A stretch of 64,000 nt of DNA, taken from positions 806,001-870,000 of the forward strand of contig CP051239.1 in NCBI GenBank assembly GCA_017794945.1, given 5' to 3'. Within the stretch, counting starts at the first letter, position 1. Each line of letters begins with the position of its first letter. The translations under genes and the position numbers were made by a program. Shown in pieces: positions 24,055-57,648 of the stretch. Below the pieces are notes generated by a model that was not told the origin of the DNA, did no database searches, and saw nothing but the letters and a program-made list of their open reading frames with translations. Source of the stretch: Alcanivorax sp. (GTDB lineage Bacteria; Pseudomonadota; Gammaproteobacteria; Pseudomonadales; Alcanivoracaceae).

Positions 24055-24223
24055 GCAGTTAATAGTTAACAGTGAACAGTTAATAGTTGCGCGGGCGGGG
24101 TTGGTGCCACGCTGAACGCAAAGAGGCCGCGCCCCAAAGCCAGGAGCGCGGCCTCTTTCGTTTCAGAACAACACGGACGGTGGTCCGCGAGCTGTTAACT
24201 GTTCACTGTTAACTCTTAACTGC
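24055..24223. repeat. Heptanucleotide (AGTTAAY) array pair flanking a bidirectional terminator
   Basis: The left arm 24055-24088 is a run of 7-mers AGTTAAT, AGTTAAC, AGTGAAC, AGTTAAT. The right arm 24190-24223 is its inverse with about four mismatches. The centre holds a perfect 13-bp stem, 24120-24132 (AAAGAGGCCGCGC) with 24146-24158, with A-rich and T-rich ends suited to termination in both directions. It fills the space between convergent coq7 and speD. A sister element lies at 33955-34140. Confidence 0.88.
24120..24158. terminator. Bidirectional terminator between coq7 and speD
   Basis: A 13-bp perfect GC-rich stem beginning AAAGAGG and ending CCTCTTT, with a 13-base loop, followed by TCGTTT. 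The convergent genes on both sides make a two-way terminator likely. Confidence 0.8.
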
Positions 24224-24227
24224 CTTT

Positions 24228-25031
24228 TTACATGTTGCGGCTGTAGAAGATTTCGAGCATTTCGGTCTGCAGGCGTTCGCGGATATCGGCGAGCTCCTTG
24301 TCGTCGAACTCGTCGCTGCCGGCGCCGAACAGGTAGTTGTTGATGTCGAACTCCTTGAGAAGCATCTTGGTGTGGAAGATGTTCTCCTGGTACACGTTCA
24401 CATCGATCATCTGGTACCCGTTCTGGGTGTCCTCGGTGAGGAAGTTCTGAATCGAGTTGATGTCGTGGTCGATGTAGTGCTTGGTGCCGTCCAGGTCGCG
24501 GGTCATGCCACGCACCCGGTAATCGATGGTGACGATGTCGGAATCGAAGCTGTGGATCAGATAATTGAGCGCCCGCAGCGGTGAAATCACACCGCAGGTG
24601 GACACGTCCACGTCCACCCGGAAGGTGGAGATGCCATTATCCGGGTGGGATTCCGGGTAGGTGTGCACCGTCACGTGGCTCTTGTTCAGGTGGGCGACCA
24701 CCGAATCCGGCAGCGGCCCCGGCGCCTCTTCGTCCCAATCACCGTCGGTGGGCGGGGACTCGTGCTCGGCGATCAGCATGGTCACGCTGGCGCCCTGGGG
24801 ATCGTAATCCTGGCGAGCGATGTTAAGGATATTGGCGCCGATGATCCGGGTCACGTTGGTGAGGATCTCGGTGAGACGCTCGGCGTTGTACAGCTCGTCG
24901 ATGTATTCGATGTATTCCTTGCGATGCTGCTCGGTTTTCGCATAGGCGATATCGAAGATATTAAAGCTGAGGGACTTGGTCAGGTTGTTAAAACCATGTA
25001 CCGAAATCTTGGGATTGGGATCTTTCACCAC
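24228..25031 (-). CDS. speD: S-adenosylmethionine decarboxylase proenzyme
   Basis: 267 residues, similar to the E. coli enzyme (264). It supplies decarboxylated SAM for spermidine synthesis. The proenzyme self-cleaves before a serine that becomes the pyruvoyl cofactor; here [16 protein letters not shown] places it at Ser118. [16 protein letters not shown] and [14 protein letters not shown] are conserved. The start is non-ATG: GTG at 25031 or the next codon (GTG at 25028), with GGGGAA upstream. speE is not adjacent. It lies 25 bases downstream of the OsmC gene in the same direction. Confidence 0.96.
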
Positions 25032-33955: not shown

Positions 33956-34140
33956 CAGTTAATAGTTAACAGTGAACAGTTAACAGTTCGCGGTAGAGGC
34001 TGCCGCCAATTTGAAAGGTGTGAGGCCGCGCTTCCGAATTGGGCGCGGCCTCTTACGTTCCAGTCGGCACCGCCCAACCCCGCGCAACTATTAACTGTTA
34101 ACTATTCACTGTTAACTGCTAACTATTCACTATTAACTGC
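33955..34140. repeat. Second heptanucleotide (AGTTAAY) array pair around a terminator stem
   Basis: The left arm 33955-33988 is nearly identical to the arm at 24055-24088 (one clear difference). The right arm 34086-34140 is inverted and longer (55 bases, about 7.5 heptads), as if units were duplicated. The centre has a perfect 10-bp stem, GAGGCCGCGC (34022-34031) with 34043-34052, the same core as the first element. It sits between the convergent PNPOx-like and response-regulator genes. Confidence 0.88.
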
Positions 34141-57617: not shown

Positions 57618-57648
57618 CAGTTAATAGTTAAGAGTGAATAGTTAATAG
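57618..57648 (+). repeat. Lone heptanucleotide (AGTTAAY) array
   Basis: AGTTAAT, AGTTAAG, AGTGAAT, AGTTAAT then AG: just over four units in the same order as the left arms at 24055 and 33955. It has no inverted partner and no central stem. It starts six bases after the prkA stop, before yeaH. Confidence 0.82.

What the first reader, a model, noticed from the sequence alone, without database searches (positions are those of the whole stretch)
24055..24223. Heptanucleotide AGTTAAY array forming an inverted pair around a terminator
In a GC-rich genome, an AT-rich 7-base period (AGTTAAT, AGTTAAC, AGTGAAC, AGTTAAT) stands out sharply. It is repeated in inverse on the far side of a 13-bp stem. I know no named family with this unit. 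It may be a REP-like mobile element, a protein-binding array or a nucleoid anchor.
Basis: partly seen in the sequence, partly recalled or inferred. Interest (0 to 1): 0.75.

Follow-up and report, generated by a model that had tools for sequence, protein, structure and literature searches.

The report
Heptamer-armed hairpins at gene ends
This marine bacterium carries dozens of long DNA hairpins, built from repeated 7-letter words and fitted right up against the ends of genes; related species keep hairpins in the same places but spell them with different 7-letter words, which hints at an unrecognised process that renews them.

Summary
Window 24057-24221 is a 165-bp hairpin: four AGTKAAY heptamers, a core with a 13-bp stem, and the heptamers in inverse (-109 kcal/mol, z -12.8). 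I found 33 such loci in the genome (Alloalcanivorax, near A. venustensis): 24 inward-facing pairs, no outward ones, 9 single arms. Of 45 arms facing a stop codon, 41 start within -19..+10 nt of it.

In sister species the same gene-end positions hold arms of another heptamer (AGTKGAY, AGTTGMA, AAGCTNC, GACGCYK, GATRCAG), REP-like palindromes, or nothing. Genomes differ in which heptamer dominates. At several loci both arms changed class while a locus-specific core stayed, sometimes inverted. In other phyla, AGTKAAY arrays also tend to follow stop codons, and those with a partner pair inward.

Best reading: REPIN-like gene-end palindromes that turn over by insertion, nesting, loss and arm exchange, perhaps doubling as terminators or mRNA 3'-end hairpins. 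No mobilising enzyme was identified. Parts of the kind are in print (Xanthomonas GGGAATC pairs read as G-quadruplexes; paired repeats in Geobacter; Beggiatoaceae TAACTGA). My searches of open-licence papers found neither this unit nor in-place arm switching.

The parts
24057..24221 (.). whole element 1: arm - core - inverted arm, between the stop codons of a COQ7-family gene (+, ends 24053) and an S-adenosylmethionine decarboxylase gene (-, stop at 24228-24230)
24057..24084 (+). left heptamer arm, 4 AGTKAAY units (a fifth, degenerate unit AGTTGCG follows at 24085-24091)
24120..24158 (.). terminator-like 13-bp stem with 13-nt loop inside the core
24194..24221 (-). right heptamer arm, inverted
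33957..34138 (.). whole element 2, between a pyridoxamine-phosphate-oxidase-like gene (+) and a response-regulator gene (-)
33957..33984 (+). left arm of element 2, 4 units (a fifth, degenerate unit follows)
34022..34052 (.). GAGGCCGCGC stem-loop in the core of element 2
34090..34138 (-). right arm of element 2, 7 units
57619..57646 (+). single arm, 4 units, 6 nt after the stop of a PrkA gene and before a DUF444 gene on the same strand

Best explanation
These are extragenic palindromes of the REPIN-like kind whose arms are short arrays of one heptamer. Each unit is arm (about 28-50 nt) - core (in many copies with a terminator-like stem) - inverted arm, and folds as one long hairpin. SHOWN by sequence: the architecture, the fit to stop codons, the turnover at orthologous sites, one clear case of concentric nesting, and remnants of older arms. 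INFERRED: copies arise by insertion at gene ends and inside older copies; selection keeps those that start at or after a stop codon and do not part a gene from its start region; once there they act as terminators or mRNA 3'-end hairpins; inverted arms let the core flip; the self-complementary GTTAAC shared by both arms lets the element be lost by slippage, leaving AGTTAACT-like scars; arms are exchanged for the heptamer type common in that genome by an unidentified copying process.
For: 33 loci, 24 inward pairs, 0 outward. 41 of 45 stop-facing arms within -19..+10 nt of the stop; 13 convergent, 11 tandem and 0 divergent pairs. Hairpin z -12.8 and -8.0. Three-unit matches in 15 of 56 relatives plus the own genome, 1 to 433 per genome, 2 of 29 genera. 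Orthologous loci hold the same class, another class, a REP-like repeat or nothing. Concentric nesting of three arm classes. Old-class unit left outside new-class arms in G006 and G009. Scar beside a REP pair in G010. Published REPs share the position: most between convergent genes lie <20 bp from both ORF ends and often supply the stop (PMC3733652, section 15 read).
Against: No transposase or other enzyme tied to the arms: none of 30 Y1-transposase loci carries AGTKAAY or AGTKGAY arms within 1.5 kb. No target duplication was established. Cores are mostly locus-specific: the orthologous core was the best match in 19 of 20 loci between G000 and G005, so copying of whole elements between loci is not directly seen. 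Class switching with the core kept is not what plain transposition predicts. Terminator function rests on a consensus scan with a weak excess (2 found, shuffle mean 0.5).
Confidence: 0.55

Rival explanations
1. No mobile element: arms grow in place around native terminator hairpins by replication slippage in 7-nt steps and by hairpin template switching, which also flips the core.
For: Period 7 is the most frequent tandem period. Cores are locus-specific and are kept when arms change. Core inversions occur. Slippage has been proposed in print for heptamers (PMC4692102, PMC4679880; passages read).
Against: Arms at unrelated loci share one positional consensus, which local growth does not predict. 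Arms within an element are not more alike than between elements (0.842 against 0.859; 98.9% of permutations reach the observed value), against hairpin templating. Genomes differ in dominant class.
Confidence: 0.2
2. A REPIN subclass moved in trans by RAYT (Y1) transposases.
For: Same niche and hairpin layout as REPINs. Y1 genes occur in 21 of 24 genomes, and G034, G015 and G016, which lack them, have few or no arrays. In G019 a different heptamer class (TAGCGAG) lies inside REP-flanked units on both sides of a Y1 gene.
Against: None of 30 Y1 loci carries AGTKAAY or AGTKGAY arms. The arms lack the GTAG/CGTC tag (consensus). G002, G003 and G004 have Y1 genes and no AGTKAAY or AGTKGAY arrays.
Confidence: 0.1
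3. A binding array: a DNA- or RNA-binding protein recognises the heptamer at 3' ends, and its changing specificity drives the dialects.
For: Sense orientation at stops, also for the single arms; one dominant heptamer in several genomes; sense bias in other phyla.
Against: For pairs, sense orientation follows from inward facing. No candidate protein. Orthologous genes lose the array, or carry a REP instead, without visible loss of the gene.
Confidence: 0.09
4. A translational backstop: units carry TAA or TGA and the 7-nt step shifts the frame.
For: In 19 of 45 arms the gene's stop codon overlaps or lies inside the array.
Against: The example AGTKAAY arm has stops in only 2 of 3 sense frames; the AAGCTNC example and GGGAATC have none, yet they occur at the same kind of place.
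Confidence: 0.04

Closest known systems
GGGAATC heptamer repeats of Xanthomonas and GGGGA(C/T)T of Nostoc (Rehm et al. 2015, PMC4692102; passages and sections 15-16 read)
   Same: Tandem heptamers, mostly intergenic; 70 and 75 close convergent pairs in two Xanthomonas genomes; strong preference for the stop codon, coding strand. My own check of GGGAATC in one other genome: 3 of 4 loci inward pairs, 3 of 4 with a sense stop 4-28 nt before.
   Different: Unit; explained there by G-quadruplexes, which an AGTKAAY array without G-tracts cannot form; no orthologous class switching described in what I read.
REP/REPIN palindromes with RAYT (PMC3116915, abstract only; PMC3733652, passages and section 15)
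   Same: Inverted pairs forming hairpins, extragenic, close to ORF 3' ends, can supply the stop codon, genome-specific populations.
   Different: Arms are tandem heptamers without GTAG/CGTC tag; no linked RAYT found.
Paired tandem-repeat sites of Geobacter metallireducens (PMC2700814; passages only)
   Same: Several classes in one genome of short tandem repeats on opposite strands (one class of heptanucleotides), called predicted global regulator binding sites.
   Different: Units; relation to stop codons not stated in what I read.
TAACTGA repeats of Beggiatoaceae (PMC4679880; abstract, introduction, passages)
   Same: Tandem heptamers, stops in all frames noted, spread over distant phyla.
   Different: Mostly just upstream of start codons; [quoted passage not shown] other unit.

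Membership tests
REP/REPIN (GTAG or CGTC tagged) | Inverted pair with spacer, folding as a hairpin, in extragenic space | tested here: met
   24 inward pairs, z -12.8 and -8.0 for the two folded
REP/REPIN (GTAG or CGTC tagged) | Unit is a 20-40 bp palindrome tagged GTAG or CGTC at one end | tested here: not met
   Arm consensus is tandem heptamers without such a tag
REP/REPIN (GTAG or CGTC tagged) | A RAYT gene linked to the same repeat | tested here: not met
   0 of 30 Y1 loci (+-1.5 kb) with AGTKAAY or AGTKGAY arms; 30 of the listed hits were read, not all
Heptamer repeats of the Xanthomonas type | Tandem heptamers, convergent pairs, close to stop codons on the coding strand | tested here: met
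Heptamer repeats of the Xanthomonas type | G-tracts able to form a quadruplex | tested here: not met
   No GGG in the AGTKAAY unit; arms read
TAACTGA repeats (Beggiatoaceae) | Unit TAACTGA, placed just before start codons | tested here: not met
   Unit AGTKAAY; arms begin at stop codons
MITE of an insertion sequence | Terminal inverted repeats shared with a full transposon, and target duplication | tested here: inconclusive
   Inverted arms present; no duplication established from empty alleles; no full-length parent seen, but no systematic search for one was made
Integron attC site | Palindrome after a gene with RYYYAAC...GTTRRRY ends (recalled) | not tested
   Considered because attC sites also follow stop codons; only compared by eye with the recalled consensus, which the arm ends do not fit
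Intrinsic terminator | GC-rich stem followed by a T-run | tested here: inconclusive
   2 terminator-like sites on the minus strand, 0 on the plus strand, shuffle mean 0.5; no transcript data

The most novel reading that the evidence does not exclude
A dedicated, undescribed system writes heptamer arms on both sides of gene-end hairpins. Each genome has a current 'dialect'; the system replaces both arms in place with that dialect and rejoins the resident core in either orientation; it, or relatives of it, works in many phyla. The GGGAATC, paired Geobacter and AGTKAAY repeats would be dialects of one process.
Probability: 0.12. Interest if true: 0.88.

Novelty: new variant of a known kind. Interest (0 to 1): 0.6.

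Why it matters
Heptamer repeats in bacteria have been reported piecemeal and explained one by one (quadruplexes, regulator sites, slippage). Here one architecture, inward heptamer arms set at stop codons around a core, is shared by AT-rich and G-rich units and by several phyla, so explanations tied to one unit cannot be general. Sister species with different dialects at the same loci make the question of how such repeats spread and stay uniform directly testable. It also bears on how bacterial gene ends and terminators evolve.

Tried and rejected
RAYT mobilisation: 30 Y1 loci read, no AGTKAAY or AGTKGAY arms; kept as a rival only. Hairpin-templated homogenisation of the two arms: tested and contradicted. 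Three-frame stop backstop: fails for AAGCTNC and GGGAATC. G-quadruplex: no G-tracts in the unit. Rfam: nothing at gathering thresholds in the window. Target site or duplication from empty alleles: candidates exist (G012 speD-coq7 gap of 13 nt; G002 at the 839957 locus; G010 at 118199), but each may be a deletion scar, so no target was fixed.

Controls: the reversed-pattern control is not valid for AGTKGAY and AGTTGMA, because the reversed pattern hits the same arrays; it is near zero against the full counts for AGTKAAY in most genomes (not in G029, 2 matches against 10) and zero for GACGCYK.

Dropped before counts: two of 35 array clusters (G000 514454 and 901016) are two-unit matches inside genes and were left out of the 33. 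In one search arrays too near a stretch end were not scored (99 arrays from 120 stretches). In one search one of 29 relatives (G020) was not read. In one search loci with poorly aligned flanks are unscored: 2 of 33 for G005, 16 for G010, 15 for G012; for G010 only 14 stretches had been fetched, beside two loci in hand. 'REP' is a short motif match. The output was cut in the middle, so locus states are counted. The listings stop at about 100 rows of 187, so some arrays may be missing from the 60 found. Gene ends come from my own ORF scoring, not a gene finder.

Full report
WHAT IS THERE. Window 24057-24221 lies between the stop codon of a COQ7-family gene (+) and that of an S-adenosylmethionine decarboxylase gene (-) (Pfam). 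The left arm starts 3 nt after one stop and the right arm ends 6 nt from the other. As RNA it folds into a single hairpin, -109.2 kcal/mol, z -12.8; the second element in the window gives -89.3, z -8.0. Chance is excluded: 19 matches against 0.06 expected.

GENOME-WIDE. The genome (3.14 Mb, one contig, 86% complete) has 187 two-unit matches with at most one mismatch, against 3 for the reversed control. In the stretches fetched and the window I found 60 arrays in 35 clusters. Two clusters are two-unit matches inside genes, leaving 33 loci: 24 pairs and 9 single arms. All 24 pairs face inward. With my own ORF-based gene calls, 13 pairs lie between convergent genes, 11 between tandem genes, none between divergent genes. 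Of 45 arms that face a stop codon in sense, 41 start between -19 and +10 nt of the end of that stop, and in 19 the stop overlaps or lies inside the array. One locus could not be scored because the neighbouring gene is outside the stretch. For pairs, sense orientation follows from inward facing, so only the single arms add independent weight.

NOT A PLAIN MICROSATELLITE. Arms at unrelated loci share a positional consensus: outer unit AGTTAAN, then AGTTAAC, AGTGAAY, AGTTAAY and an inner AGYGAAA-like unit (57 arms). Arms of one element are not more alike than arms of different elements (0.842 against 0.859; 98.9% of 5000 permutations reach the observed mean). Copying between the two arms of a hairpin is therefore not what keeps them uniform.

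THE FAMILY. A stretch of relative G005 (same genus) is contained unchanged in Alloalcanivorax venustensis ISO4 contig28, so the window is from an Alloalcanivorax; the family name Alcanivoracaceae is recalled. Three-unit AGTKAAY matches (up to 1 mismatch) occur in the own genome and 15 of 56 relatives, in 2 of 29 genera, 1 to 433 per genome. Counts for AGTKAAY/AGTKGAY/AGTTGMA/GACGCYK, both strands: G000 124/6/3/1; G005 118/22/6/1; G010 13/108/5/1; G006 4/183/0/5; G008 131/16/0/18; G009 36/135/0/446; G001 1/8/47/612; G003 0/0/103/0; G012 4/0/4/114; G033 433/17/29/147; G034 0/0/1/4. Many genomes have one dominant unit, a dialect; some mix (G027 128/103/43/0; G031 82/58/30/4). A scan for any tandem repeat of period 4 to 15 in 464 kb of 11 genomes found period 7 the most frequent (35 runs; next 14 with 21 and 6 with 16).

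SAME PLACE, DIFFERENT WORDS. At speD-coq7, read in 28 of 29 relatives, the gap after the stop holds AGTKAAY arms (G005, G007, G008, G011, G019, G027, G033), AGTKGAY arms (G006, G009, G010), AATTGAT arms (G024, G029), CGCCTGA arms (G001), AAGCTTC-like repeats (G031; two units in G002 and G004), a REP-like repeat (G003), only 13 nt (G012), or no recognisable repeat. For the 33 loci: G005, 31 scored: 21 same class, 7 AGTKGAY, 1 AAGCTNC, 1 nested, 1 REP. G010, 17 scored: 11 AGTKGAY, 4 AGTKAAY, 1 REP, 1 none. G012, 18 scored: 8 REP, 8 none, 1 GATRCAG, 1 coreless AGTKAAY palindrome. Heptamer hairpins and REP-like pairs thus occupy one niche. Published REPs show the same position: most between convergent genes lie <20 bp from both ORF ends, and they often supply the stop (PMC3733652, section 15).

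ARMS CHANGE, CORES STAY. Cores are mostly locus-specific. In 19 of 20 loci the G000 core matches the orthologous G005 core better than any other G005 core compared. Against G010 this holds for 7 of 10 loci, among them 6 of the 9 in which both arms are AGTKGAY in G010. At 921688 and 1821212 the alignment is collinear from flank to flank while nearly every unit of both arms differs by A to G at position 5. At 743498, 784643, 2290634 and 3123485 the class differs and the core is inverted. Over comparisons with a recognisable orthologous core, the core is inverted in 2 of 16 same-class comparisons (G000-G005) and in 5 of 8 loci with switched class (G005 or G010): Fisher p 0.021; within G005 alone 3 of 3 against 2 of 16, p 0.010, leaving out 2374462, whose core was not the best match. 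This test was chosen after seeing the data, some loci count in both groups, one call (2652876) is nearly tied, and G010 may simply be more distant. I treat it as a lead.

NESTING AND LOSS. At the G005 counterpart of 1879987 three palindromes are concentric: AAGCTGC-type arms around AGTTGAA-type arms around GATACAG-type arms. In G006 and G009 one AGTKAAY unit remains outside AGTKGAY arms. In G010 at 263963 the sequence AGTTAACT sits beside a REP pair. GTTAAC is its own reverse complement, so both arms carry it in direct orientation, a possible route to loss by slippage (inference).

BEYOND THE FAMILY. Of 99 arrays with enough flank, 55 have an ORF of at least 100 codons ending in sense between 40 nt before and 25 nt inside the array, against 16 in antisense and 7% at random positions; 19 have an inward partner, 0 an outward one. 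Counting only ORF ends before the array, up to 60 nt away, sense leads 40 to 22 of 105 arrays. Within 10 nt it is 26 ORF ends to 3, and 14 to 3 among the 64 arrays whose titles I read as outside Alcanivoracaceae. About half of the arrays in other phyla show no stop nearby, and most have no partner. A planctomycete locus (L332) reads AGTTAAT AGTTAAT AGTGAAT AGTTAAT, core, inverse arms, the same unit order as here. AT-rich genomes may add chance arrays. GGGAATC, the Xanthomonas unit, was found in 1 of 369 genomes of the class; of its four loci, 3 are inward pairs and 3 have a sense stop 4-28 nt before the array.

MECHANISM. Most likely these are REPIN-like palindromes that turn over by insertion at gene ends and inside older copies, with slippage loss, core inversion and arm exchange, and that perhaps act as terminators or mRNA 3'-end hairpins. 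Shown: layout, position, turnover, nesting. Inferred: transposition, function, the arm-exchange process. No enzyme is known: Y1 transposases occur in 21 of 24 genomes, but none of the 30 loci read carries AGTKAAY or AGTKGAY arms. The consensus scan gives only weak support for terminators (2 sites, minus strand, shuffle mean 0.5).

KNOWN OR NEW. Heptamer repeats, convergent pairs and stop proximity are in print for GGGAATC (PMC4692102), paired tandem repeats for Geobacter (PMC2700814), TAACTGA repeats near start codons for Beggiatoaceae (PMC4679880). I found no paper naming this unit or the dialect switching (searches; open-licence papers only). Cyanobacterial STRR heptamers are recalled and were not read. 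I file it as a new variant of a known kind.

Noticed in passing
L245 (G005 C34:31300-32344): Three concentric palindromes of three heptamer classes at one gene end, like nested dolls.
   Followed up: partly
window 24120-24158 and the G005 orthologue (L090): The terminator loop alone appears inverted between G000 and G005, although the rest of the core runs in the same direction.
   Followed up: partly
L224 (G019 C11:117907-118215 +-1.5 kb): A Y1 transposase gene flanked on both sides by REP units that contain TAGCGAG-type heptamers.
   Followed up: partly
G000:C1:2544762-2546983: Three Y1-transposase-like genes in a row.
   Followed up: no
L057 / L254 (G000:C1:2921679 and G005 C8:8700-9714): A hairpin spans the stop codon just before the array, and its two sides differ together between G000 and G005.
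   Followed up: no
L188 (G012 C1:203001-223000): Where G000 has a full element (921688), G012 has only two arms back to back with a 3-nt loop and no core.
   Followed up: no
L176:182-237 (G009): Eight perfect AACACGC units, a further heptamer class.
   Followed up: no
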